Of a DNA stretch of 64,000 bases, positions 636 through 50,031 are shown one piece after another (position 1 is the first letter of the stretch; every line of letters starts with the position of its first letter). The stretch is from IMG/VR virus record IMGVR_UViG_3300030099_006646, positions 62,001 to 126,000 of that record, one strand, 5' to 3'. The translations under genes were made by a program, and so were the position numbers. The notes under the pieces are model-generated. The model was given only the letters and a program-made list of their open reading frames with translations. It was not told the DNA's origin and did not search any database. The stretch is from a virus.

Positions 636-1172
636 TTGATTTTAGCCCTAGACATTTCAACCAGCATTACAGGAGTAACAATACTTGAAAAAGATGGAAC
701 TCTTGTTTATAATGATGCATGGGACACACGAAAATACAAAAACTTTTTCGAAAAGGTAGAGTATGTTGAGAAGAACATTAAAAAGCTTCATAATAACGGC
801 TTCGGAATCAGAAGAGTATATATTGAGCAATCTCTCCAGTCTTTCAGATCTGGATTCTCGTCGGCTAAAACTCTGTCAACTCTCGCTCGTTTTAATGGGG
901 TGGTGTCATGGCTGGTATATCGAATATTGCAGATTGAGCCACAGTACTTAGCTGCGACTTCTGCTCGCAAGCTATGCGGCATTAAAGTTCCACGAGGAAC
1001 AAAAGCAAAACAAGTTGTTATACAGCACATTCTAGATAATGTCCCAGAAATTCAAATAGAGTATACAAAGCAAAACAACATTAAGCCTCATTGTTACGAC
1101 AAGGCAGATAGTTGGGTTATTGCTAAAGCAGGGCTTATACAATGTCAACAGGAAGAAAAACAGCAATCATAA
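636..1172 (+). CDS. RuvC-like Holliday junction resolvase / RNase H-fold endonuclease
   Basis: 178 residues of the RNase H-like superfamily. The N terminus LALDISTSITGV (residues 3-14) is a typical first beta strand with the first catalytic Asp. IEQSL near residue 63 supplies the second acidic residue and DKADSW near 155 the C-terminal acidic cluster. Family members cleave branched DNA during recombination or before packaging. The start is taken as TTG at 636, because the frame is closed by the TAA at 624 and no ATG precedes the first catalytic strand; there is no clear ribosome site. The 3' end overlaps the primase gene by 31 bases, suggesting coupled translation. Confidence 0.72.
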   Translation: MILALDISTSITGVTILEKDGTLVYNDAWDTRKYKNFFEKVEYVEKNIKKLHNNGFGIRRVYIEQSLQSFRSGFSSAKTLSTLARFNGVVSWLVYRILQIEPQYLAATSARKLCGIKVPRGTKAKQVVIQHILDNVPEIQIEYTKQNNIKPHCYDKADSWVIAKAGLIQCQQEEKQQS

Positions 1173-2083
1173 AGGATATCTTTGGGGCTTGTTACGGCTC
1201 CGGTTCCGAAATGCTGTTTCACTGCCCTAAATGTGAACACCACAAGCGCAAACTTTCTATTAACATAGAAAAGGATGCTTGGAAGTGCTGGGTTTGCGAT
1301 TGGTCAGGACGAAACTTAACCAAGATTGTCCGCCGCTATGGCGACCTTTATCACAAGAAGAAATGGTCAGAACTTGTAAATAAAGTCGAACTTGCTTCTT
1401 TTGAAGAAAAGATGTTTGCTATCGAGGAAGAAGAACCAGAACAAAGGGTCGAACTTCCAAAAGAGTTTAAGTCTTTAGCCAACAAAGCCGTTCCTCGTTC
1501 AGCAGGACAAGCCCTTCGTTACTTGCGAGAAAGAGGAATAAAAAAAGACGACATTATAAGATGGAAGATTGGTTATTGTGAAGACGGAGAATTTGCCAAG
1601 CGAATCATCATACCATCCTTTTCCTTAAATGGTCATAGCAACTACTTTATTGCCCGTTCCTACGATGGGCACTGGAAAAGATACCTAAACCCCAAGGCAT
1701 CCCGTAACATCGTTTTTAACCACCTTTTCTTGGACTTTGAGGACGATCTAACAATAGTCGAGGGAGCATTTGACGCAATCGTCGCAGGACCTAATGCAGT
1801 TCCCCTTCTAGGCTCAACCCTTCGTGAAACATCCAAGTTATTCCACGAGATTGTAAGAAACGATACAACAGTCTACATGGCTCTTGACCCTGACGCAAAA
1901 GCAAAAGAACACAAAATAATCGAACTTTTGTTAAAATACGGCGTCCAAGTCTACAAAATAAATCTAAATGATTACGATGATGTAGGAGAAATGACTCCCG
2001 AGGACTTCAAAAAAAGAAAGGAAAACGCTTCTTTTGTAGAGGATAAATTCTATTTACTTATGGAAAAGACGCTTGGTCTTTAG
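1142..2083 (+). CDS. DnaG-type DNA primase (zinc finger plus Toprim)
   Basis: 313 residues. An N-terminal zinc-binding region has CPKC near residue 27 and CWVC near residue 50. A Toprim catalytic core follows, with the glutamate in VEGAFDA near residue 207 and the acidic pair in LDPDAKA near 249. It should make RNA primers for lagging-strand synthesis with the DnaB-type helicase encoded at 50064. It is short compared with bacterial DnaG (about 580 residues) and lacks a helicase domain, resembling T4 gp61-like stand-alone primases. The start overlaps the resolvase gene by 31 bases. Confidence 0.82.
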   Translation: MSTGRKTAIIKDIFGACYGSGSEMLFHCPKCEHHKRKLSINIEKDAWKCWVCDWSGRNLTKIVRRYGDLYHKKKWSELVNKVELASFEEKMFAIEEEEPEQRVELPKEFKSLANKAVPRSAGQALRYLRERGIKKDDIIRWKIGYCEDGEFAKRIIIPSFSLNGHSNYFIARSYDGHWKRYLNPKASRNIVFNHLFLDFEDDLTIVEGAFDAIVAGPNAVPLLGSTLRETSKLFHEIVRNDTTVYMALDPDAKAKEHKIIELLLKYGVQVYKINLNDYDDVGEMTPEDFKKRKENASFVEDKFYLLMEKTLGL

Positions 2084-2100: not shown

Positions 2101-2883
2101 ATGACGAAAGTAGATGGAAACGTCACTATTCGAGGCGATGTAAAGCTTCAGTATAGAAGTGATATTTATTCACCACCACCAGTAACATACTTAAGAATGA
2201 ACGAAGGGACAGGCACAACAGCCGCAGATTCTTCAAACGCAGGTAATGGTTTTGATGGAACGCTAGGAGGCACCGCTTCTTGGTCCACCGAATTCAAGAA
2301 TGGTCCTTACGCTGTTGAGTTTGATGGCGACTCTGATTACATTGATATGGGAAATAATACAGCCCTAGCCCCATCTACTGCTTTCAGTATTTCTTACTGG
2401 GTAAGAGCGAACTCTTTCACAGGATACACCAGAATGGTTTCTAAATACCCAACTGGTGGAAGTTCACCCTCTTACTCTTACGCTATCTTGACAGGAAACG
2501 GCACAGGTCAAGTTAGATTTATTCTTATGCAAGCATCCAACACAGGTTCTGGTACAGTCTTAATGACTAATAGCGCTGAACTATCTGTTGATACTTGGCA
2601 CCATGTTGTATGCACTTATTCAGGTGCTGATAGAAGAATGCGTATTTATGTTGACGGAGCCCTAAAAACTTCCACACTTACAGGAACAGTTCCTACTTCT
2701 ATAAACCAAGGCACAGCAAAGTTGTCTTTGGCGGCAAATCTTGCTGGTTCTGTTGGAGCACGTCAGTATTTTAATGGCTACATGGACGAGTTCTCTATTT
2801 GGGATGTAGAACTAACAGCAGATCAGATTTCTTATGTTTACGGCAACGGCGTCCCACCAGATCTTTCTGTCGGAATTCCATAG
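2101..2883 (+). CDS. LamG/concanavalin-A-like lectin domain protein, copy 1
   Basis: 260 residues forming a single LamG-type jelly roll. Typical signatures are YAVEFDGDSDYIDMG (about 74-88), FSISYWVRA, WHHVVCTYSG and MRIYVDGALK. No signal peptide or membrane segment is seen. A good ribosome site (AAGGGAG) precedes the ATG. Such domains bind carbohydrate or protein surfaces; on a phage the usual place is the virion surface or fiber tip, but nothing here proves it is a virion protein. It is a paralogue of the next gene: the first 50 or so residues and the last 25 are nearly shared while the middle diverges. It sits oddly between replication and repair genes. Confidence 0.8.
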   Translation: MTKVDGNVTIRGDVKLQYRSDIYSPPPVTYLRMNEGTGTTAADSSNAGNGFDGTLGGTASWSTEFKNGPYAVEFDGDSDYIDMGNNTALAPSTAFSISYWVRANSFTGYTRMVSKYPTGGSSPSYSYAILTGNGTGQVRFILMQASNTGSGTVLMTNSAELSVDTWHHVVCTYSGADRRMRIYVDGALKTSTLTGTVPTSINQGTAKLSLAANLAGSVGARQYFNGYMDEFSIWDVELTADQISYVYGNGVPPDLSVGIP

Positions 2884-2898
2884 GAGAAAATAAAAAAA

Positions 2899-3699
2899 AT
2901 GTCTCAAATAGATGGAAATATTCTAGTTCAAGGAAGCACAAGTACTCAATATCAAAGTGATATCTATACACCGCCACCCGTAGTTTATTTAAGAATGAAC
3001 GAAGGATCAGGTACAACAGCCGCAGATTCTTCAAACGCTGGAAATAATCTTGACGGAACTTTAGGAGGAAATGCCTCTTGGACATCTACTAAGTATAAAA
3101 ACGGACCTTATGCCGTAGAATTTGATGGTAACGCCGATTATATTGACTTGGGAACCAGCACCACGCTCAAACCTAATACTGCTATGAGTATATCAGCGTG
3201 GGTATATTCAGAGGATTTTGGTAGTGATTTTAAATATATAATTGCTGCATGGCCAGGACAAGGTGCTGCTTCTAATTATTCTTTTTTCCTTGGTCACGGC
3301 GGCTCAGGCGAGGGGAATGGAAAAATAGGGTGGGGAGTTATGAAGCATCCTGCTGGAGGTACGGGCGTTTGGCTTCAAACTGATGATGTGGTAATCACTT
3401 TAAATCAGTGGCACCACGTTGCAGTAACATATTCTGGTGCAAATAATAGAATGCGTATCTATATCGACGGCGCTTTAAAAGACGCTACTCACTTGAGAAA
3501 TGCTGTTCCCTCACAGATTAGCCAAGGAAGCCATAACGTAGCAATTGGATACAACTATAACGGTTCCCCTTCTTATCCTTATTCTTGGGATGGTGCTATA
3601 GATGAACTTTCAATGTGGGATGTAGAGCTTACAGCGAACCAAGTTTCTTATTTATATGGAAACGGAGTTCCTCCTAATGTTTCTGTTGGAATTCCATAG
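2899..3699 (+). CDS. LamG/concanavalin-A-like lectin domain protein, copy 2
   Basis: 266 residues, the tandem paralogue of the gene just upstream (15-base gap). It shares the N-terminal pattern SDIYxPPPVxYLRMNEG and the C-terminal pattern YGNGVPPxxSVGIP, and the LamG marks YAVEFDGNADYIDLG, WHHVAVTYSG and MRIYIDGALK. The central loops differ in length and sequence, which is what one expects if the binding face is diversifying. The gene has a GGAG ribosome site. It probably binds a surface glycan as a displayed virion protein; the ligand is unknown. Confidence 0.8.
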   Translation: MSQIDGNILVQGSTSTQYQSDIYTPPPVVYLRMNEGSGTTAADSSNAGNNLDGTLGGNASWTSTKYKNGPYAVEFDGNADYIDLGTSTTLKPNTAMSISAWVYSEDFGSDFKYIIAAWPGQGAASNYSFFLGHGGSGEGNGKIGWGVMKHPAGGTGVWLQTDDVVITLNQWHHVAVTYSGANNRMRIYIDGALKDATHLRNAVPSQISQGSHNVAIGYNYNGSPSYPYSWDGAIDELSMWDVELTANQVSYLYGNGVPPNVSVGIP

Positions 3700-4092: not shown

Positions 4093-7000
4093 ATGAAGAT
4101 TGCACACATTTCTGACATTCACATTCGCAACTATCGCTATCACTATGAATACGAACAGGTCTTTGAGCAACTCTACGCAAAGCTAGAGGAACTAAAGCCT
4201 GATCTTATCGTAAACACAGGCGATACTGCTCATACTAAACTTAACCTTAGCCCGTCTTATTTTGATATGGCGGTTAGAATGTTTGAGAGGCTAGCTGACA
4301 TTGCCCCTTATCATATTATCTTGGGGAACCACGATCTAAACCTTCGTAATCTCTCCAAGATAGATGCCGTTTCCCCCCTTGTTGCGGCATTGGACCACCC
4401 TAACATTCACTTTCACAAATATTCTGCGGAAGTGGACATAGGCAATAACTTTTGTTTTCATGTCCTATCCATTGTAGACGAAGAAAATTGGACACTCCCA
4501 ACAGACATGGATAAAGTACATATCGCTCTTTTTCACGGCTCTGTTGCTGGTGTTCAAACTTCTACTGGCTGGACAATGACTCACGGTGACATTAACTTAG
4601 ATCGCCTTACAGAATACGATTATGCTCTTCTTGGCGATATTCACAAGCCTAATCAACCCTTAGATAAAGAAGGGCGTATTCGCTATGCTGGTTCTCTTGT
4701 GCAACAAAACTTTGGAGAATCAGAAGAAAAAGGATTTCTTCTTTGGGACATTAAAGATGCTGATACTTTTAAAGTAAAACACTACGCATTAGAAAACCCA
4801 AAGCCCTTTGTCACTATCAACCTTACAAAGAAAGGCAAGATACCAGCAAAAGCAAAGATCCCAGAAGGGTGCCGGTTACGTCTTGTAACAGAAGTTAATC
4901 TTCCTATGGACATAATCAAGCGAACGATTGAACTTGCGAAGACAAAGTATAAACCAGAGACAATCAATTTTCATTCTAAAGTTGTCGGCAACAGAAAAGG
5001 AGGAGACGACGCATCTAATACAGTCTTTAAAGACGATTTGCGAAGTGTAGAAGTTCAAGAAGGTCTTATACAAGATTATTTAAAAGACTATGAACTTGAA
5101 GAAGAAACACTGCAACAAATCTTCGCTTTAAACCAGAAGTATAATAAACTCGTTACAGAAGAAGAAGAGGTAAGTCGCAACGTTCACTGGTCTGTGAAGA
5201 GTCTTGAGTGGGACAATCTTTTTAACTATGGAGAAGCAAATACTATTGATTTCAATAATCTAGAAGGAACAGTAGGTATTTTTGGCAAGAATTTTTCTGG
5301 TAAATCTTCTATTGTTGATTCATTCCTTTATACTTTGTTCAACACAACCTCCAAGAATGAAAGGAAAAACCTCAACATTATTAACCAGAATAAAGAAAAC
5401 GGAAGAGGAAGCGTCAGTATTGATATTGGAACTGACACTTATCATGTTGAAAGAACAAGCGAGAAATACGAAAAGAAACTTAAAGGCAACATTACAACAG
5501 AAGCCAAGACAAATATTGAGTTCTACAAGGTAGATAACATTACAGGCGAAGAAACACCTCTTAATGGTGATACAAGAGCGCAAACAGACAAAAACATTCG
5601 TTCTGTCTTTGGTTCAATAGAAGACTTTCTTTTAACTTCTATGGGTTCTCAGTTAGAGTCTCTTGCTTACATTAACGAAGGCTCGACAAAGCGTAAAGAA
5701 ATTCTTGCTAAGTTTCTTGACTTGGAAGTCTTTGAGAAGAAGTTTAAAAAAGCAAAAGACGACGCTGCTGATTTGAGGGTTGCTCTCAAAAAGATGAAGG
5801 ATAGAGATTTTGTAACAGAACTTAAAGAAAAAAGAAAAGAACTTGCTTTAAGCGAAACAAAGATTGATATCAAAAAAAGAGAAAATGAAGACCTTAAAGA
5901 ACTTACATTAGGATTTAGAGAAAACATATTAGCTTTAGAAACAAAGATTAACTCTATACCAGATGAAATAATCGAAATCCAAGAAGTCTTAGAAGAAATA
6001 AAAGAAAAGAAAGAAGAACTTGACAGCATTTCAAACAAAGAAAAAGATTATATGGATGAAATTGCTGAAAAGCTTGAGTTTGTAAAGAAGTTTGAAAACT
6101 TCCAAAAAGTATTTGATATTGATGATGCTTTAAAAAACAAAGAGTTTGGCGAAGATATGATCTCAGAGCTTGATAGTTTTTCAAGAGATATTGAAGTTTT
6201 GGAAATAAAGTTCAACAATCAGTCCAAAAAAGCATCTCTTTTAAATGAAGTCCCTTGTGGTCCAAAATATTCCTCATGCAAGTTTATTAAAGACGCCTAT
6301 AACGCATCTTCTCAACTAGAGAATACCAAGGTGGCTTTAAATGAACTAAAGCTCTCAAAAGGGCAAAAACAAGCCGAATTAGATAACTTAGAACACGATA
6401 AGAATATTGAAAGAATCAACGGATATATAAAGGCAAAAGAGAAAAAGAACAAATATGAAAAACAAGTTAAAGATATTAGATTAGATATTGAACGGAACAA
6501 GATAAAATCCCTACAGATCAATAATGATCTTAATAACTTAATAGAAAAAAGAGAAGAATACGAAGAGAACAAGGATGCTATTGAAAACCTTCAATTTCTT
6601 GTAAAGGAAAAGAAGAAGCTGAAACATATCGTCTCAACAAATGAGATTGCAGTAGAAAAAGCATCAGAAGATCTTCTTGATCTTTACAAAGCAAATGGCT
6701 CTCTAGAACAACAATACAAACAAATTGAACTTGAGCAGAAAGAACATGATACTTTAAACAAGAGCTTTTCAACTTACGACTTGTATATGAAGTGTGTCCA
6801 TTCAAACGGCATTGCATATGACTTAATCAAGCAAAGCCTACCTATTCTTAACCAAGAAATACAAAAGATTTTATCTAATGTGGTTGAGTTTGAGGTTATG
6901 TTTGAGAATGACGACAACAAACTTGACATTTTGATCAAACACCCTAAGTATGAGGCACGACCCATTGAGATGGGCTCAGGCGCAGAGAAGACAATCGCAG

Positions 7001-7245
7001 CAATGGCTATTCGTTTAGCTCTTTTAAATGTTTCTACCTTGCCAAAAGGAGATGTATTTATCCTTGACGAACCAGGAACAGCCCTTGATGAAGAAAATAT
7101 GGAAGGATTTATTCGCATTTTGGATATAATTAAAAGCGAGTTTAAAACAATCTTTCTTATTTCACACTTAGAAGTCTTAAAAGATATTGTAGATAAGCAA
7201 ATAATCATTAACAAAGAAGATGGTTATGCTAAAGTAAACGAATAA
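4093..7245 (+). CDS. SbcD-SbcC (Mre11-Rad50 / gp47-gp46) fusion nuclease-ATPase
   Basis: 1050 residues joining two enzymes that are normally separate. Residues 1-230 are a metallophosphoesterase: HISDIHI, NTGDTAH, LGNHDLN, FHGS and LGDIHKP carry the metal ligands. A linker/capping region runs to about 365. An SbcC/Rad50 ATPase follows: Walker A GKNFSGKS near 398-405, long coiled coil (about 540-870), a ligand-type hinge PCGPKYSSC near 719 where Rad50 would have a CxxC hook, signature region MGSGAEKT, and Walker B VFILDEPG near 985. In T4, gp47 and gp46 (339 and 560 residues) form this complex for recombination-dependent replication and host DNA breakdown. The hook cysteines are six residues apart rather than two. 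Confidence 0.88.
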   Translation: MKIAHISDIHIRNYRYHYEYEQVFEQLYAKLEELKPDLIVNTGDTAHTKLNLSPSYFDMAVRMFERLADIAPYHIILGNHDLNLRNLSKIDAVSPLVAALDHPNIHFHKYSAEVDIGNNFCFHVLSIVDEENWTLPTDMDKVHIALFHGSVAGVQTSTGWTMTHGDINLDRLTEYDYALLGDIHKPNQPLDKEGRIRYAGSLVQQNFGESEEKGFLLWDIKDADTFKVKHYALENPKPFVTINLTKKGKIPAKAKIPEGCRLRLVTEVNLPMDIIKRTIELAKTKYKPETINFHSKVVGNRKGGDDASNTVFKDDLRSVEVQEGLIQDYLKDYELEEETLQQIFALNQKYNKLVTEEEEVSRNVHWSVKSLEWDNLFNYGEANTIDFNNLEGTVGIFGKNFSGKSSIVDSFLYTLFNTTSKNERKNLNIINQNKENGRGSVSIDIGTDTYHVERTSEKYEKKLKGNITTEAKTNIEFYKVDNITGEETPLNGDTRAQTDKNIRSVFGSIEDFLLTSMGSQLESLAYINEGSTKRKEILAKFLDLEVFEKKFKKAKDDAADLRVALKKMKDRDFVTELKEKRKELALSETKIDIKKRENEDLKELTLGFRENILALETKINSIPDEIIEIQEVLEEIKEKKEELDSISNKEKDYMDEIAEKLEFVKKFENFQKVFDIDDALKNKEFGEDMISELDSFSRDIEVLEIKFNNQSKKASLLNEVPCGPKYSSCKFIKDAYNASSQLENTKVALNELKLSKGQKQAELDNLEHDKNIERINGYIKAKEKKNKYEKQVKDIRLDIERNKIKSLQINNDLNNLIEKREEYEENKDAIENLQFLVKEKKKLKHIVSTNEIAVEKASEDLLDLYKANGSLEQQYKQIELEQKEHDTLNKSFSTYDLYMKCVHSNGIAYDLIKQSLPILNQEIQKILSNVVEFEVMFENDDNKLDILIKHPKYEARPIEMGSGAEKTIAAMAIRLALLNVSTLPKGDVFILDEPGTALDEENMEGFIRILDIIKSEFKTIFLISHLEVLKDIVDKQIIINKEDGYAKVNE

Positions 7246-7256
7246 AGGAGAAAAAA

Positions 7257-7451
7257 ATGGAAAAAATCAAAGCAGCTTTAGATAAAGCAGTAGAAAAAGT
7301 AATCAGCCGCAAGTTTCTTGCTTGGCTTACAGCGACAGGACTAGCAGGTTATGGCTTGTTAGAATCAAGTGACTGGGTTGCAGTCACAGTTATGTATATT
7401 GGTTCTCAAGCTCTTGTTGATTTAGCCACACAGTGGAAGCATGGGAAATAA
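7257..7451 (+). CDS. Small two-segment membrane protein, holin-like
   Basis: 64 residues. After a charged N-terminal helix come two hydrophobic stretches, FLAWLTATGLAGYGLL and WVAVTVMYIGSQALV, joined by a short acidic turn, and a basic tail. Strong AAAGGAG ribosome site. Size and topology fit a small class II holin, and the next two genes have spanin-like topologies, but there is no family signature. The end overlaps the next gene by 11 bases. Confidence 0.5.
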   Translation: MEKIKAALDKAVEKVISRKFLAWLTATGLAGYGLLESSDWVAVTVMYIGSQALVDLATQWKHGK

Positions 7452-7842
7452 AACCATGTTAGCTTTAAAAAAAGCTTGGACATGGATAAAAAAGCACTGG
7501 TATGTTCCGGTGCTTTTTGTTTTAGTTATTGTTGGTAGCTTGTTTAGCTTCTCTAGGAACAAGAAATTGATTAAACTACTTGAGATTAATAAAGAAAGCT
7601 ATGAAAAACAAATCAAAGCCATAGAAGAAAGCCACGCAACCGAGCTTAAGAAAAGAGACGAGCTTTACGCTAAATATGTTGAAACAATGAAGAAGCTCAA
7701 CAAAGAGCATGAGATAGATTTAGATAATCTTTCCAAAGAAAAGAAAGAAAAAATGGACAATATGGTTAAGAAATACGAAGGAACACCAGAAGAACTTGCA
7801 AAAGAACTGGCAGAAATGTTTGGAGTTGATTATGTTGAGTAA
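7441..7842 (+). CDS. Membrane-anchored coiled-coil protein, spanin-like topology
   Basis: 133 residues. One N-terminal membrane segment (WYVPVLFVLVIVGSLFSF, about 21-38) is followed by about 80 residues of charged heptad-like coiled coil. This is the topology of an inner-membrane spanin (Rz-like), though many phage proteins share it. The start overlaps the holin-like gene and the end overlaps the next by 11 bases. A codon earlier than ATG 7441 is not needed. Function is inferred from topology alone. Confidence 0.5.
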   Translation: MGNKTMLALKKAWTWIKKHWYVPVLFVLVIVGSLFSFSRNKKLIKLLEINKESYEKQIKAIEESHATELKKRDELYAKYVETMKKLNKEHEIDLDNLSKEKKEKMDNMVKKYEGTPEELAKELAEMFGVDYVE

Positions 7843-8311
7843 ACTTCTATCCGTATTTCTATGTTGCTTATTGGCTTTTATGCCGACTGTCGTAATAGCT
7901 GGTGAGTCAGACCCAGATAACTCTATAAGTTCAAATGGAAGGGTGACTGTAATAGGTCAGGGCGAGAAAACTCCCTATGGGGGTCTTCTTTTTGATTTAA
8001 AGGCTTCTGTCAAACTAAAGTTAGATAAAGAATTTGCTTTAAAGAAATACCAACTAGAGCTAGACTTGCAGAAGAAGCTTATTACTTCTGAGTTTAAGTT
8101 AAAGCTTGATTTGCTTCAAGCAAAGCATGATGGATTAAAAGATAAACATACTGCTTTGTTGAAGATTAAAGATGAAGAGATAAATCGCCTACAAGAGTTA
8201 GTTAAAAAAAGCCCCAACGATTATAATCATTGGTGGTTTGTAGGAGGAATTATAGCAGGGTGTCTTCTTTCTATAGGAGTTTATTACGCTGCTATCAAAA
8301 TCGCAGAATGA
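7832..8311 (+). CDS. Exported coiled-coil protein with C-terminal membrane anchor
   Basis: 159 residues from ATG 7832, preceded by GGAG at 7822-7825; the longer frame from 7796 has no ribosome site and would bury the signal peptide. Residues 1-24 form a signal peptide (LLSVFLCCLLAFMPTVVIAG). The middle is a coiled coil, and the C terminus has one membrane segment (FVGGIIAGCLLSIGVYYA). The order signal, coiled coil, anchor resembles a periplasm-spanning protein, but there is no clean lipobox (FLC rather than a small residue before Cys), so a true u-spanin is not supported. The stop overlaps the next start as ATGA. Confidence 0.5.
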   Translation: MLSKLLSVFLCCLLAFMPTVVIAGESDPDNSISSNGRVTVIGQGEKTPYGGLLFDLKASVKLKLDKEFALKKYQLELDLQKKLITSEFKLKLDLLQAKHDGLKDKHTALLKIKDEEINRLQELVKKSPNDYNHWWFVGGIIAGCLLSIGVYYAAIKIAE

Positions 8312-9242: not shown

Positions 9243-10817
9243 ATGTCTTATAAGCCAACAAAGAAAGAAATATTAGCAGAAATTGTTAAATCAGGGAAGG
9301 ACCCATCTTACTTTATTAACAACTATGCCAAAATCGCGCACCCTATGCGTGGATTGATTCCGTTTAAGTTGTACCCATTCCAGGATCAGCTTCTTTGTGA
9401 TTTTAATGACCACAGGTTTAATGTTATCTTAAAAGCAAGACAGCTCGGTATTTCAACTATTACCGCAGCATATATTGCTTGGATGATGATGTTCCACCGA
9501 GATAAAAATATCCTTGTTATTGCTACAAAGTTTGGGACCGCTGCCAATCTTGTAAAGAAAGTAAAAGCAATCATTAAGTATCTACCTTCTTGGATGAAGA
9601 TTGCCAATATTCATATTGACAATAGAACTTCTTTTGAGCTTTCTAATGGTTCTCAGATTAAAGCGTCTTCTACTTCTTCAGATGCTGGTCGTTCAGAAGC
9701 GCTTTCTCTCCTTGTTATTGACGAGGCAGCGCATGTTGATGGTCTTGACGACCTTTGGACTGGTCTATATTCTACTCTATCGACTGGTGGTCGATGTATT
9801 GCACTTTCAACCCCGAATGGCTGTGGAAACTGGTTTCATCAAACTTATATTGATGCCGCAGCAGAGAACAACGATTTTTTCCCCACAAAGTTAATGTGGG
9901 ACGTCCACCCAGAGCGCAATCAAGAATGGTTTGAAAAAGAAACAAGAAACATGTCTAGACGACAAGTTGCTCAAGAACTTGAATGCAATTTTAATATGTC
10001 TGGTGAGACTGTATTCCACCCTGACGACATGAGTTACATTGAACAAAGTGTAAAGCCTCCAAAATATAAAACTGCCTTTGACAGAAACTTTTGGATCTGG
10101 GAGGAATATCAAGAAGACTCCACTTATCTTATTTCAGCCGATGTCGCAAGAGGCGACGGAAAAGATTATTCTACATTTCATGTTATAAAAATTGAGACAA
10201 ATGAAGTTGTAGGAGAATACCAAGGAAAGTTAACACCAGACATTTTTTCTGGTATACTTTATGATGCTGGTAAGGAATATGGCGACTGCATGATTGTTGT
10301 GGAGAATATGGCTGCTGGACATACGGTATTGGATAAACTTGTGGAAAGAGAATATCCTAACATTTATTACTCTTACAAATCTACTCACGAGTATGTAGAT
10401 CAGGTAACTGCCGAGCATTCTAATAGTGCTATAGCAGGTTTTACAACCTCTAGCAAGACTAGACCTCTAATAATCGCAAAAATGGAAGAATTCATTAGAA
10501 ATAAACTACTTACGATATATTCGACAAGATTACTTGAGGAGATGAAAACATTCATTTGGCACAATGGTCGCCCGCAAGCTATGAGAAAGTATAATGATGA
10601 CTTGGTTATGGCTTGTGCGATAAGTTGCTGGGTGAGAGATACAGCTTTTGAAACAAACAAAAGAGAACTAGAATATAAAAAAGCATTTTTGGATTCTATG
10701 ATGACTACAAAAAAAGAAATCAATACAACAATCCCAGGAATGCAAGGATATAAAGCAATAAAAACACAGAATACGGTTAAACAATACAAAGATTATAATT
10801 GGCTTTTAAAAGGATAG
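9243..10817 (+). CDS. Terminase large subunit (gp17-like)
   Basis: 524 residues with both domains of the packaging motor. The ATPase has a Walker A-like ARQLGIST (65-72), in which the usual Lys of GKS/T is Ile, Walker B LLVIDEAAH near 157, and the coupling motif ALSTPNG. The RNase H-fold nuclease begins with SADVARGDGKDYS near 298 and continues with the acid in VVENMAAG. It packages concatemeric DNA into proheads through the portal encoded 4 bases downstream. Size is somewhat below T4 gp17 (610). Confidence 0.93.
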   Translation: MSYKPTKKEILAEIVKSGKDPSYFINNYAKIAHPMRGLIPFKLYPFQDQLLCDFNDHRFNVILKARQLGISTITAAYIAWMMMFHRDKNILVIATKFGTAANLVKKVKAIIKYLPSWMKIANIHIDNRTSFELSNGSQIKASSTSSDAGRSEALSLLVIDEAAHVDGLDDLWTGLYSTLSTGGRCIALSTPNGCGNWFHQTYIDAAAENNDFFPTKLMWDVHPERNQEWFEKETRNMSRRQVAQELECNFNMSGETVFHPDDMSYIEQSVKPPKYKTAFDRNFWIWEEYQEDSTYLISADVARGDGKDYSTFHVIKIETNEVVGEYQGKLTPDIFSGILYDAGKEYGDCMIVVENMAAGHTVLDKLVEREYPNIYYSYKSTHEYVDQVTAEHSNSAIAGFTTSSKTRPLIIAKMEEFIRNKLLTIYSTRLLEEMKTFIWHNGRPQAMRKYNDDLVMACAISCWVRDTAFETNKRELEYKKAFLDSMMTTKKEINTTIPGMQGYKAIKTQNTVKQYKDYNWLLKG

Positions 10818-42303: not shown

Positions 42304-43638
42304 ATGGTTGAAGAATATTATGCAAAAAACAACTTAGATCCGAAAATGGCTTTTAATGAAAGGGCAATGTATAAAGAATTTGCCATGCAGGCATACGACG
42401 ATTTAAACTTGACAGACTTTCTTTATGGCAATCCTTTTTATGGAAAAATAGACAGAGAAGGATATGCTGTTATTCTTGATGAGTCTCATTTAAAGCAGTA
42501 CGAAACAGATACTACTTTATTTGGTTTAAATTTTGTTGTTGACGCTTTCGAAGATTTTAAGGTTAAGTTTATATATGAAGTAACAGAGAAACTAGGAATC
42601 GCTAACTACAGCACAAGATTCATGAAATTTCTACCTAAAAGAGCCTGGATTAGCGCACATCAAGAGTATCATCAGTATCAGAAAGACATATACTCTATTA
42701 TATATCAAACAATGTTCGGAAATAAAACCTTGCGAAAGAAGTATTGCAATTTTAAAAAGTTTCTAGATTTTTATTTTACTTCTATGGCTGGTGTAGCTAG
42801 GAACAGTCCAGTAACAAAGACAGCTTTTATGAAAAGCAACCTTTCTTCTCCTGGGGTTAGCGGATTAACTATAGACCTGTTTTCGAAGATTCGCGCAGAT
42901 GACGATTTAAAGAAAAAAGATTTTTTGGAAGATAAGTTCTTAGATTTTTTTATTAGAACAGCGATTGAGCATGGTCTGTCATTAGATGTTAATGTTCCTT
43001 GGCGACTCGTTGCTCGTTTAGACTCTCCGCATATGAAAAAATATATGAGACAAAGAAATCTAACAATTGAAAATGTCTTTGATAATGCTTATAATAGGGT
43101 ATACAAAACAGAATACGATGATTTTAAGCTTACAGCAAGAGAATATTACAATGGCATCGTTACTAATTTTTCTGAAGAAAGTTTCCCTGATTATAATAAA
43201 AAAGGAAAGATGTTTATAAACTCTATAAAAAGAGAATACGTTTCAGAAATTGATGTTGAAAATATGCCTGAAATGTTCTGGCTTGAAAAATATTTCCTTA
43301 TAAGAAATATAGAGAATGGAAAAACTATGTCAAGAAAAGAGCAAAAAGAAACAAACAAGAAGATTGGAAATTTCTATAGGAAATATGGCTTGAGCAAAAC
43401 TTTAGATATGGTAGAGAAAAGACTTATTAAACTTGACCCAACAGCCATTCCAAAAAACAGAAAAGAAAAGTTTAACTATGGAAAGCTAAATCCTAGCACC
43501 AACATCTACTCTGGAAAGCCAGAGAAAGTCATGGAAAAGAAAAAGAAAGATAAAGACACTTTCTCTACCACCACTAACATCCATACAGGACAAATCACTG
43601 GCGGCTCAACCAGCGGCGGTGGTTCTAGCTCGTACTAA
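42304..43638 (+). CDS. Virion protein of the baseplate region, unknown
   Basis: 444 residues, basic, rich in Phe, Tyr and Lys. No membrane segment. The motif KSNLSSPGVSGLTIDLFSK (about 180-198) and the region DVNVPWRLVARLDSPHMKKY look like conserved blocks. The last 50 residues are Lys- then Gly/Ser-rich and probably disordered. It follows the 1573-residue gene after 11 bases and ends the tail operon. Function unknown. Confidence 0.55.
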   Translation: MVEEYYAKNNLDPKMAFNERAMYKEFAMQAYDDLNLTDFLYGNPFYGKIDREGYAVILDESHLKQYETDTTLFGLNFVVDAFEDFKVKFIYEVTEKLGIANYSTRFMKFLPKRAWISAHQEYHQYQKDIYSIIYQTMFGNKTLRKKYCNFKKFLDFYFTSMAGVARNSPVTKTAFMKSNLSSPGVSGLTIDLFSKIRADDDLKKKDFLEDKFLDFFIRTAIEHGLSLDVNVPWRLVARLDSPHMKKYMRQRNLTIENVFDNAYNRVYKTEYDDFKLTAREYYNGIVTNFSEESFPDYNKKGKMFINSIKREYVSEIDVENMPEMFWLEKYFLIRNIENGKTMSRKEQKETNKKIGNFYRKYGLSKTLDMVEKRLIKLDPTAIPKNRKEKFNYGKLNPSTNIYSGKPEKVMEKKKKDKDTFSTTTNIHTGQITGGSTSGGGSSSY

Positions 43639-43646
43639 GAGGATAA

Positions 43647-44831
43647 ATGCTATTTCAAGTATTAGATGACAAAGAGGAGTGCGTATCTGTATGCCTCAAC
43701 GGCAAGATTGTGCGCGACCCTTCGTTCGACAATCTTACCAAAACTTGGCGCTGGTTGCCTTCTATTGGCGATGCTGACGTGGAATGCGCTTTTCTTTATG
43801 CGAACGGCAAGAGCCTAAACGACCTTTGCCCCGAGGATTTAAAAGAAGAGTGGAGCGCTCTATTAAAGAAGTTCGCCGCATTCAACACTGCATTCAAGCA
43901 AGCTAGGATTGAAACTAGGGATGTTTGCCGGGACCTTCTTATACCCGACAGGTACTTCAAAGAACTTTGCTTCTTTAAAGATAAAATTTCAGAACACGTC
44001 TTTGAAAACTACGAGAAGCCATCCAACTATGACTTTCTTTATAATCTAACCAAAATCCTTGAAGAAATCAAAACACAGAAACTTAATATTGTTCCTTATG
44101 GCTTAGAAGACCGAATGTCTGCCATAAAGACGCGCAACTTCGCTCGAAAGTTAAAGCATCTTCAGCCCTATATCAACTATGATATCTTTGGAACAATCAC
44201 AGGACGCCTTACCACAAAAAGAAATAGCTTCCCTATTCTTACCCTCGACAAAGATCATCGTCAAGTAATTCACCCTAACAACGATGACTTCATCGAACTA
44301 GACTTTAACGCAGCCGAGATAAGGGTGTTTTTAGCCCTTGCAGGCGTTTCACAACCAAAAGAAGATATTCATACCTGGATAAATGAAAACGTCTTTAAGG
44401 GGCAAAAAACTAGGGAAGAAACGAAAAAGGCTGTTTTTGCTTGGCTATACAATCCAAAAGCATCCAACAAAAAACTTGAAGAACTATTTAAAAGAGACGA
44501 TGTAATTGCCAAGCATTACGATGGCACGCACGTTCATACGCCTTTCGGTCGCAAGATAGAAGTACAAACAGACAAGGCACTAAACTACATTATCCAATCA
44601 ACTTCTTCAGACCTTTTCTTGCGAAGAATGATTGAGATTCACAAGAAACTTAAAGGAAAAAAGACAAAGATTGCTTTTTGTATTCACGATTCGCTTGTTT
44701 TAGATTATAATAGGCAAGACAGAAAAGTGCTAGAAGAAGTAATCAACACATTCGAAGAAACAGACCTTGGAGATTTTAAAGTAAATGTCTCCACAGGCAA
44801 GAACTTCGGCAGATTAAGAAAGATTTTATAG
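43647..44831 (+). CDS. Family A DNA polymerase, polymerase module only
   Basis: 394 residues. Motif A is LDFNAAEIRVFLALAG (Asp near 219), motif B is REETKKAVFAWLYN (RxxxKxxxFxxxY, near 255), and motif C is FCIHDSLVLD (near 347), where HDS stands for the usual HDE. There is no room for a 3'-5' exonuclease domain, and no 5' nuclease; the latter is a separate gene at 49048. It may fill gaps or process Okazaki fragments rather than act as the main replicase, since a DnaE-type enzyme is encoded at 59322. Confidence 0.82.
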   Translation: MLFQVLDDKEECVSVCLNGKIVRDPSFDNLTKTWRWLPSIGDADVECAFLYANGKSLNDLCPEDLKEEWSALLKKFAAFNTAFKQARIETRDVCRDLLIPDRYFKELCFFKDKISEHVFENYEKPSNYDFLYNLTKILEEIKTQKLNIVPYGLEDRMSAIKTRNFARKLKHLQPYINYDIFGTITGRLTTKRNSFPILTLDKDHRQVIHPNNDDFIELDFNAAEIRVFLALAGVSQPKEDIHTWINENVFKGQKTREETKKAVFAWLYNPKASNKKLEELFKRDDVIAKHYDGTHVHTPFGRKIEVQTDKALNYIIQSTSSDLFLRRMIEIHKKLKGKKTKIAFCIHDSLVLDYNRQDRKVLEEVINTFEETDLGDFKVNVSTGKNFGRLRKIL

Positions 44832-47603: not shown

Positions 47604-48698
47604 ATGTCAGTAGGTAAAATGTCGCCAGACGACATAAGAAGACTTTTAAATAAAACTGCTGGACAGCAAATCTCCCATAATCTTAATAAAGATAACCCTA
47701 CAAATGTAACAGAATGGATTCCAACTGGCTCACGCTGGTTGGATTCTATTGTTTGTAGAGGGAAACTTGCAGGCATTCCAGTAGGTAAAGTAACAGAGAT
47801 TGCTGGTCTAGAATCAACTGGTAAATCTTATATGGCTGCTCAGGTAGCAGCAAACGCTCAGAAGATGGGTATTCAGGTTGTTTACTTTGATTCTGAGTCT
47901 GCGCTTGATTCTACTTTCTTGGAAAGATCAGGCTGTAATGTAGACGATATTGTTTATACTCAAGCAGTCTCAGTAGAGAAGGTCTTGGAAATGATCGAGA
48001 TGCTTATGGTAAACAACGAACAAAAAATGTTGTTTATCTGGGATTCTCTGGCTCTTACTCCAACGGAAAAGACTATCGAAGGAGACTTTAATCCTCAGTC
48101 TTCTATGGCAGTAAAAGCAAGAGTTTTGTCGAAAGGAATGCAGAAACTTACAGTTCCTATTGCCAATACTCAAAGCACCATGCTTGTTCTTAATCAGCTT
48201 AAGACCAACATTACCAACAACATTGCGGAGACTTTGACTACTCCCTATGTAACACCAGGAGGCAAGACTCTTCCCTACACTTATTCGCTAAGGGTTTGGC
48301 TGACTTCTCGTAAAGCAAAGAATTCTTTTGTTACCGATAGCAAAGGCTTCAGGATTGGTTCAGAAGTCAAGTGTACGCTAAAGAAAAGCCGCTTTGGAAC
48401 TCAAGGTCGTCAATGTACATTCAAAATCTTGTGGGGCGAGAACATCGGCGTCCAAGATGAAGAAAGTTGGTTTGAAGCCGTCAAAGGAGCACCACAGATT
48501 GAATCTAAGGGTGCTTGGTATACTTTAACTTACAAAGACGGCAAGACTGAAAAGTTTCAAGCAGCTAAATGGATGGACAAACTTAAGAATGAAAAGTTTA
48601 AAAACCGCATCCTTGAAATTATGGATGAAGAGGTTATAATGAAGTTTGACACCAGAGAAGGCAATGCATCAGATTTTTACGAAATAGACGAAGAATAA
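47604..48698 (+). CDS. UvsX/RecA-type recombinase
   Basis: 364 residues (T4 UvsX 391). TEIAGLESTGKSYMAAQVA (Walker A GLESTGKS, near 67-75), YFDSESALD (near 93), and FIWDSLALTP (Walker B) are typical RecA-family features. It drives strand exchange in recombination-dependent replication with gp32, and the SbcD-SbcC fusion would produce its substrates. Very good AAAGGAGG ribosome site. Confidence 0.9.
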   Translation: MSVGKMSPDDIRRLLNKTAGQQISHNLNKDNPTNVTEWIPTGSRWLDSIVCRGKLAGIPVGKVTEIAGLESTGKSYMAAQVAANAQKMGIQVVYFDSESALDSTFLERSGCNVDDIVYTQAVSVEKVLEMIEMLMVNNEQKMLFIWDSLALTPTEKTIEGDFNPQSSMAVKARVLSKGMQKLTVPIANTQSTMLVLNQLKTNITNNIAETLTTPYVTPGGKTLPYTYSLRVWLTSRKAKNSFVTDSKGFRIGSEVKCTLKKSRFGTQGRQCTFKILWGENIGVQDEESWFEAVKGAPQIESKGAWYTLTYKDGKTEKFQAAKWMDKLKNEKFKNRILEIMDEEVIMKFDTREGNASDFYEIDEE

Positions 48699-49047: not shown

Positions 49048-50031
49048 ATGTCTGATAAACGAGTGATTGTTCTCGACATGAACAATTTGTTTCTGCGGTC
49101 GTATATTATGGACCCAACCATATCTCTCAATGGACCTCCGATTGGAGGCATAAGAGGTTTTTTTCGTTCCCTTCAAAAGATTTGTAGAGAGTTAAACCCA
49201 ACAAAGATTGTTGCTTGTTGGGATGGTGAAGGTGGTTCCCAAAAACGTCGCAAGATAACGAAAGAATATAAAGAAGGTCGCAAGCCTTTAAAGCTTAATA
49301 GGTCTGTCCAAGCTTTGACCCCAAACCAAGTCCAGCAAAATCAAGTATGGCAAAACATGCGGGTAATGGAGTACATGAACGAGACACCCATTATTCAACT
49401 TGGTTTCCCAGGAGTAGAAGCTGATGATGTTATATCAAAGGTAGTTCAGTCTACCAACCTTGAAGACTATAAAAAGATTATTGTGTCGGCTGATAAAGAC
49501 TTTTGGCAACTTATTACAGACGACACGATTGTTTATCGCCCTATTGGCTCAGAAACCATAACAAAAGAAATTGTTTTAGAAAAAGAAAACATTCATCCTA
49601 CTAATTTTGTTTTGGCTAGATCTATCGCGGGTGACAAAAGCGACAACTTAGATGGAATCCCAGGAGCAGGATTAAAGACCATTGCTAAAAGATTTCCATT
49701 TCTAAAAGAAGAAAAAGAATACTCAATCAGCGACTTATTAGAATATTCTGACAAAATGTTGAATGAGACAAAACTGAAGTTCTATCCCTCTGTTATAGAG
49801 GGTCGCCAAGTTATTCTGCGAAACTATAAAATGATGCAACTTAAAACCCCCATGTTAAGTGCTCAAGCAGCGATAGCAGTTAGGCGCACTCTTGCAGAAT
49901 CAGAATACAAGTTTAATAGAACTGCATTTAGGGCGCATATGATGAAAGACGGATTTGACATGGAGAGAAATAATTTCTCTGAACTCTTTGCTTTCTTCAA
50001 TAATATATGCCTTGAAAATCGCTCTAAATGA
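49048..50031 (+). CDS. 5'-3' exonuclease / RNase H (flap nuclease family)
   Basis: 327 residues (T4 Rnh 305). Acidic metal ligands are visible in VIVLDMNNLFLRS (near 10), GVEADDVISK (near 121), SADKDFWQL (near 147) and GDKSDNLDGIPGAG (near 195). The last is the helix-hairpin-helix DNA-binding part. It should remove RNA primers and flaps. With the family A polymerase module it re-creates the work of bacterial Pol I from two genes. Confidence 0.88.
   Translation: MSDKRVIVLDMNNLFLRSYIMDPTISLNGPPIGGIRGFFRSLQKICRELNPTKIVACWDGEGGSQKRRKITKEYKEGRKPLKLNRSVQALTPNQVQQNQVWQNMRVMEYMNETPIIQLGFPGVEADDVISKVVQSTNLEDYKKIIVSADKDFWQLITDDTIVYRPIGSETITKEIVLEKENIHPTNFVLARSIAGDKSDNLDGIPGAGLKTIAKRFPFLKEEKEYSISDLLEYSDKMLNETKLKFYPSVIEGRQVILRNYKMMQLKTPMLSAQAAIAVRRTLAESEYKFNRTAFRAHMMKDGFDMERNNFSELFAFFNNICLENRSK

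What the first reader, a model, noticed from the sequence alone, without database searches (positions are those of the whole stretch)
4093..7245. Mre11-Rad50 type nuclease and ATPase fused in one protein
Metallophosphoesterase motifs and both Walker motifs are in one 1050-residue frame, with no stop between. T4 has gp47 and gp46 as separate proteins. Fusion fixes the stoichiometry. The hinge shows C-x6-C instead of the CxxC zinc hook.
Basis: partly seen in the sequence, partly recalled or inferred. Interest (0 to 1): 0.7.

Follow-up and report, generated by a model that had tools for sequence, protein, structure and literature searches.

The report
Phage Mre11-Rad50 fusion with swappable hook
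A marine virus of bacteria carries the two halves of a universal DNA-break-processing machine joined in one protein, a type of fusion described in 2011; what looks new is that the tip where two copies link up comes in two cysteine designs that closely related viruses have repeatedly exchanged.

Summary
Window 4093-7245 is one 1050-residue frame with a complete Mre11-type nuclease followed by a complete Rad50-type ATPase. It is not an assembly error: about 80 other IMG/VR contigs carry the same single-frame fusion (47-100% identity), under strong purifying selection, in a conserved gene order (primase, fusion, TerL, portal) of Far-T4-like phages. Eleven long related records and the window's own record hold only the fused copy.

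The fusion is a known kind. Yoshida, Claverie and Ogata (2011) described Mre11/Rad50 fusions for Mimivirus R555 and its marine metagenomic homologs, which they assigned mainly to aquatic phages, with Asp replacing the metal-ligand His206; the window shares that Asp. Cultured phages have it too (Mel-JY01, pT24, PTm1, PAU, MA9V-1).

The hinge remark is the more interesting part. C722-x6-C729 lies exactly at the predicted coiled-coil apex and is strongly conserved. Among 137 non-identical relatives, 103 have C-x6/7-C and 34 have CxxC. The two types switched at least nine times on a tree built without the arms, including between proteins with 96-99% identical heads. The hook therefore behaves as an exchangeable cassette. 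Metal binding is unproven.

The parts
4093..7245 (+). Fused Mre11-Rad50 gene, 1050 aa (whole)
   Evidence: One ORF; single frame in 80 relatives; dN/dS 0.074 against L002
4093..4812 (+). Mre11-type nuclease domain, residues 1-240, all five motifs
   Evidence: Pfam Metallophos, PHROG 100, motif conservation, Mre11/SbcD structures matched in the PDB fold search
4633..4644 (+). Motif V GDIH, residues 181-184: Asp where most Mre11 have His
   Evidence: GDxH in 142 of 143 non-identical fused proteins; GHxH in the split phage and E. coli homologs examined; the same change reported for Mimivirus R555 (PMC3175470)
4813..4992 (+). Capping-domain region, residues 241-300 (boundaries approximate)
   Evidence: Strand-helix-strand elements in the AF2 model
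5038..5163 (+). Helix-loop-helix (Rad50-binding) region, residues 316-357
   Evidence: Helices 319-329 and 337-357 in the AF2 model; assignment by position and by analogy to PMC3175470
5164..5187 (+). Linker of about 8 residues, 358-365, between the HLH helix and the first Rad50 strand
   Evidence: AF2 secondary structure; E358, R362 and N363 invariant
5188..5727 (+). Rad50 N-lobe, residues 366-545, with Walker A at 5284-5310
   Evidence: Motifs, PHROG 77, AF2
5728..6249 (+). Ascending coiled-coil arm, residues 546-719
   Evidence: AF2 helices 545-719
6256..6279 (+). Hook C722-x6-C729 at the apex
   Evidence: Non-helical turn 720-732 between helices 676-719 and 733-765; column entropy 1.31 bits against 2.4 in the arms
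6289..6798 (+). Descending coiled-coil arm, residues 733-902
   Evidence: AF2 helices 733-902
6799..7242 (+). Rad50 C-lobe, residues 903-1050: signature SGAEK, Walker B ILDEP, D-loop, SH switch
   Evidence: Motifs; matches PDB Rad50 C-lobes by sequence, E=3.7e-10
1142..2083 (+). DNA primase-like gene upstream, conserved neighbour
   Evidence: PHROG 47 E=2.4e-37; found before the fusion in 88 of 102 loci
9243..10817 (+). Large terminase downstream, conserved neighbour
   Evidence: PHROG 2; present downstream in 59 loci
47604..48698 (+). UvsX-like recombinase, expected user of the resected ends
   Evidence: PHROG 97 E=2.9e-55

Best explanation
This is a single-chain Mre11-Rad50 (SbcD-SbcC, T4 gp47-gp46) DNA-end-processing nuclease of a Far-T4-like myophage. 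Two copies are expected to pair at the nuclease domains and ATPase heads and, through the hook cysteines at the far end of about 170-residue coiled-coil arms, to form the usual two-headed ring. ATP binding closes the heads over DNA; hydrolysis opens them and gives the nuclease access, producing 3' single-stranded ends for the phage's UvsX recombinase, hence recombination-dependent replication, and probably host DNA breakdown. Shown here: the single frame, all motifs, purifying selection, apex position and conservation of the cysteine pair, absence of a separate copy, and hook-type switching. Inferred: activity, dimerisation, metal binding and role in replication.
For: Complete motif sets of both enzymes in one frame. 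In trees of the Mre11 half and of the Rad50 heads, one supported branch separates the 38 fused from the 10 split homologs (100/97 and 97/95), as expected if the halves travelled together. dN/dS 0.03-0.13 in every part where it could be computed, including the HLH plus linker. AF2 model (pLDDT 78) with nuclease, HLH, head, two arms and an apex turn at 720-732. PDB fold matches are Mre11-Rad50 complexes and Mre11 among other SMC proteins; top BFVD matches are giant-virus and phage repair exonucleases aligned over about the full length. No other match to either half in the record. UvsX, SSB, DnaB-like helicase and an exonuclease in the same genome; primase next door.
Against: No biochemistry. Motif V has Asp for a metal-ligand His, so nuclease output may differ from T4 or E. 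coli. Low pTM (0.46), so domain packing is not established, and no dimer could be predicted with the tools. The gene lies near late packaging genes and not in the UvsX/helicase block. The nearest cultured relative by terminase, Flavobacterium phage immuto, has no detectable copy, so the function is dispensable or replaceable in some relatives.
Confidence: 0.82

Rival explanations
1. The fusion is a sequencing or assembly artefact that joined two genes.
For: The window is from an uncultured, assembled virus record.
Against: 80 of 80 returned IMG/VR relatives are fused in one frame; 11 long records each hold one fused copy; cultured Mel-JY01, pT24, PTm1, MA9V-1 and PAU are also fused; the linker is conserved.
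Confidence: 0.01
2. The Asp-for-His change in motif V has weakened or altered catalysis, so the protein mainly tethers DNA ends or cuts only as an endonuclease, and another phage exonuclease does the resection.
For: GDxH in 142 of 143 fused proteins against GHxH in split homologs; a separate exonuclease gene at 49048-50031.
Against: All other metal ligands are invariant; Asp can ligate Mn2+ (general knowledge); purifying selection on the nuclease half is among the strongest in the gene.
Confidence: 0.2
3. The C-x6/7-C pair does not bind zinc: it forms a disulfide, or the apex dimerises by packing alone.
Against: Interchanged with CxxC at the same site among close relatives; a cytoplasmic protein, where disulfides are unlikely (general knowledge); the Cys are among the most conserved arm residues.
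Confidence: 0.2
4. The hook types arose repeatedly by point mutation and small insertions or deletions, not by exchange of a cassette between lineages.
For: No donor sequence or sharp breakpoint identified; the arms evolve fast.
Against: The same CxxC cassette (YDPxCxxCxxNxFV) recurs in separate backgrounds with nearly identical heads.
Confidence: 0.25

Closest known systems
Mre11/Rad50 fusion proteins: Mimivirus R555 and marine metagenomic homologs (Yoshida, Claverie, Ogata 2011, PMC3175470)
   Same: Order Mre11-HLH-short linker-Rad50 in one protein; Asp replacing the His206-equivalent; marine phage setting with phage-type primase genes on the same scaffolds.
   Different: Window protein is shorter (1050 against 1351 aa). 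That paper had only partial phage sequences and does not mention the hook. A direct sequence tree with R555 was not made here.
Phage T4 gp47/gp46
   Same: Same two enzymes, same expected role; T4-like capsid and terminase relatives.
   Different: Separate genes with two ORFs between them; GHFH motif V and CPTC hook.
Fused proteins of cultured phages Mel-JY01, Tenacibaculum pT24 and PTm1, Chryseobacterium MA9V-1, Sphingomonas PAU
   Same: Single-frame fusions; all but PAU share GDxH.
   Different: All have CxxC hooks; the jumbo-phage ones are longer (1301-1326 aa) and distant.
SbcC of Moorella phage MTATph1
   Same: Rad50-type protein with a C-x7-C hook of similar sequence (VPCNDKLKPSC).
   Different: Not fused; so the long hook is not tied to the fusion.
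Canonical Rad50 zinc hook
   Same: Cys pair in a short turn at the coiled-coil apex.
   Different: Six residues between the Cys instead of two; metal binding untested.

Membership tests
Mre11/Rad50 (SbcD/SbcC) fusion proteins | Both enzymes in one uninterrupted frame, nuclease first | tested here: met
Mre11/Rad50 (SbcD/SbcC) fusion proteins | Mre11 phosphoesterase motifs DxH, GD, GNHD, H, and H/D-x-H | tested here: met
   motif V is GDIH as reported for R555
Mre11/Rad50 (SbcD/SbcC) fusion proteins | Rad50 Walker A, signature, Walker B, D-loop | tested here: met
Mre11/Rad50 (SbcD/SbcC) fusion proteins | Capping and HLH regions plus a short linker before Rad50 | tested here: met
   AF2 secondary structure, linker about 8 residues; domain names by position only
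R555-like subgroup | Grouping with Mimivirus R555 in a sequence tree | not tested
   R555 sequence not in the collections used; giant-virus repair exonucleases are the top BFVD fold matches
Rad50 zinc hook (CxxC) | CxxC at the coiled-coil apex | tested here: not met
   C-x6-C at the apex; CxxC at the same site in some close relatives
Rad50 zinc hook (CxxC) | Zn2+ shared between two protomers | not testable with these tools
   Needs metal analysis
T4 gp46/gp47 system | Two separate genes | tested here: not met
   Single frame, no second copy
Far-T4 phages | Gp23-, gp20- and gp17-type virion genes nearest to RM378/immuto-type phages | tested here: inconclusive
   Best terminase and capsid matches are immuto, Mel-JY01 and, for the capsid, RM378, ahead of T4 and cyanophages; no capsid tree with Far-T4 references was made
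Mre11/Rad50 nuclease | ATP-dependent nuclease and end tethering | not testable with these tools
   Needs purified protein

The most novel reading that the evidence does not exclude
The apex hook of these fused Mre11-Rad50 proteins is an exchangeable dimerisation cassette with two alleles (C-x6/7-C and CxxC) that do not pair well with each other, kept in circulation by recombination so that the repair complexes of co-infecting relatives do not mix. Hook switching itself is observed; the incompatibility and the selective reason are conjecture.
Probability: 0.15. Interest if true: 0.65.

Novelty: new variant of a known kind. Interest (0 to 1): 0.42.

Why it matters
The fusion gives a compact one-gene Mre11-Rad50 that could simplify structural and single-molecule work, and is a full-length phage form of a very abundant marine gene reported in 2011. 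The natural switching between two hook chemistries is a ready-made test of what the Rad50 hook must do: laboratory swaps (SMC hinge for hook) suggested it is simply a dimerisation module (PMC6969161), and here nature seems to have done a comparable experiment many times.

Tried and rejected
Assembly error: rejected. A second, unfused gp46/gp47 in the record: none found. Fused relatives in bacterial genomes: only three matches, in metagenome bins, probably phage DNA. Relatives of the split MTATph1 SbcC with a C-x7-C hook: viral scan found none, so how common long hooks are in split SbcC is open. Group I intron in the interrupted copy of the 484-kb phage: no Rfam match. Paper searches found no description of C-x6-C Rad50 hooks or of natural hook switching; the library is open-access only, so this is weak evidence of novelty. 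Pfam's own Rad50 models miss this protein at their cut-offs, so PHROGs, PDB sequences and the AF2 model were used.

Full report
Observation. The frame 4093-7245 encodes 1050 residues without a stop. The N-terminal part carries the Mre11 phosphoesterase motifs and the C-terminal part the full Rad50 ATPase set; PHROGs assign residues 1-359 to an SbcD-like and 312-1050 to an SbcC-like family. Rad50 C-lobes of solved structures match residues 906-1048 at E=3.7e-10. The hinge reads VPCGPKYSSCKFI, i.e. C722-x6-C729.

Not an artefact. A viral-contig scan found 377 related stretches; the best 80 were fetched and all 80 are single frames with both motif sets. Eleven long related records and the window's own 158.6-kb record hold exactly one copy, fused, and neither half matches any other ORF of the own record. 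dN/dS is 0.074 over the gene against L002, and 0.035 in the HLH-plus-linker region. Gene order primase - fusion - small ORFs - terminase - portal is conserved.

Which phage. Terminase and capsid are nearest to Flavobacterium phage immuto, Microcystis phage Mel-JY01 and, for the capsid, Rhodothermus phage RM378. This points to the group called Far-T4 (PMC4360716), for which Bacteroidetes hosts have been proposed (PMC7198788). Immuto itself has no detectable Mre11-Rad50.

Known kind. Yoshida et al. 2011 described Mre11/Rad50 fusions for Mimivirus R555 and found abundant marine homologs, most likely of phages, with phage-type primases on the same scaffolds and, in R555, Asp replacing His206 (PMC3175470). 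The window protein shows the same order, the same Asp (D182; 142 of 143 fused proteins) and a primase next door. Top matches of the AF2 model among viral structures are giant-virus repair exonucleases. Cultured phages with the fusion include Mel-JY01 (1066 aa), pT24, PTm1, MA9V-1 and PAU. The fusion is therefore not new. In trees of either half, one branch separates the 38 fused from the 10 split proteins sampled (100/97 and 97/95); this fits a single old fusion in this sample, but the trees are unrooted, have long branches and lack R555, and the 2011 paper inferred several fusions.

Structure. AF2 (53 sequences, pLDDT 78.4, pTM 0.46) gives nuclease, HLH helices 319-329 and 337-357, about eight linker residues, Rad50 head from 365, arm helices 545-719, a non-helical turn 720-732 holding both cysteines, and return helices 733-902. 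Domain packing is not reliable at this pTM. Arm length of about 170 residues (roughly 25 nm as helix, my arithmetic) is intermediate between T4 gp46 (560 aa in all) and E. coli SbcC (1048 aa).

The hook. Arms are variable (2.4 bits per column) but the hinge is conserved (1.31 bits; C729, L717, F731, A735 invariant). In 137 non-identical relatives 103 have the long form (this includes L215 and L216, which carry an extra Cys, PCDC) and 34 have CxxC. On a tree of the heads alone the type changes at least nine times, unchanged when branches below 80, 90 or 95 SH-aLRT are collapsed; shuffled labels give about 30. One of the nine is the deep split from the Mel-JY01-like group; the rest lie among closer relatives of the window. 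The clearest pair is L213 (C-x6-C) and L179 (CxxC): heads 96 and 99% identical, hinge 46%; DNA identity is mostly 80-99% in the heads, falls through 61-87% in the arm to 39% in the hinge block, and recovers, while two CxxC relatives (L179, L191) keep 73% there. The same CxxC motif appears in separate backgrounds. This favours exchange of a short cassette, though no donor or sharp breakpoint was identified and the arms also evolve fast. A split SbcC (Moorella phage MTATph1) has C-x7-C, so the long hook is not a consequence of fusion. Laboratory replacement of the Rad50 hook by an SMC hinge works in yeast (PMC6969161), which makes natural hook exchange plausible. That both types bind zinc is inferred.

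Mechanism. By established knowledge of Mre11-Rad50 and of T4 gp46/gp47, the complex processes DNA ends for recombination-dependent replication. The window carries UvsX-like recombinase, single-strand binding protein, DnaB-like helicase and an exonuclease, the partners such a pathway needs. The order of events (head closure on ATP, nuclease access on hydrolysis, apex tethering) is inferred from homologs, not shown here.

Verdict.

Noticed in passing
L085:1483-5705 (484-kb phage LR756508): The fused gene is interrupted just after motif V (residue 188) and resumes at residue 198; the roughly 0.9-kb insert holds a 304-aa ORF with a TnsA-like endonuclease N-terminal domain (PF08722, E=5.8e-6). No Rfam intron match.
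   Followed up: partly
L112:3007-8049 (CP070664.1, WOR-3 bacterium MAG chromosome): A 54%-identical start of the fused protein next to a DnaG-type primase ORF, then masked bases: probably phage DNA binned or scaffolded into the MAG.
   Followed up: partly
window 42304-44831: A 394-aa ORF matches only a C-terminal part of a phage DNA polymerase A family; immuto also has two separately annotated PolA genes. Possible split polymerase.
   Followed up: no
window 2101-3699: Two adjacent, related ORFs matching the same virion-structural PHROG (8510), present in few relatives; look like duplicated lectin-like genes.
   Followed up: no
window 7257-8311: Three small ORFs between the fusion and TerL, conserved in position; membrane-segment and coiled-coil look suggests a lysis or spanin-like cassette, no convincing family match.
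   Followed up: no
L083:4995-8075 (Bacillus phage 278BB001): SbcD and SbcC genes are adjacent and in the same frame, separated by only about 100 bases with stops: what a pre-fusion state could look like.
   Followed up: partly
L215, L216 hinge (EPCDCFEHLPxCQY): Long hook with an extra Cys (C-x-C...C), a third hook form.
   Followed up: no
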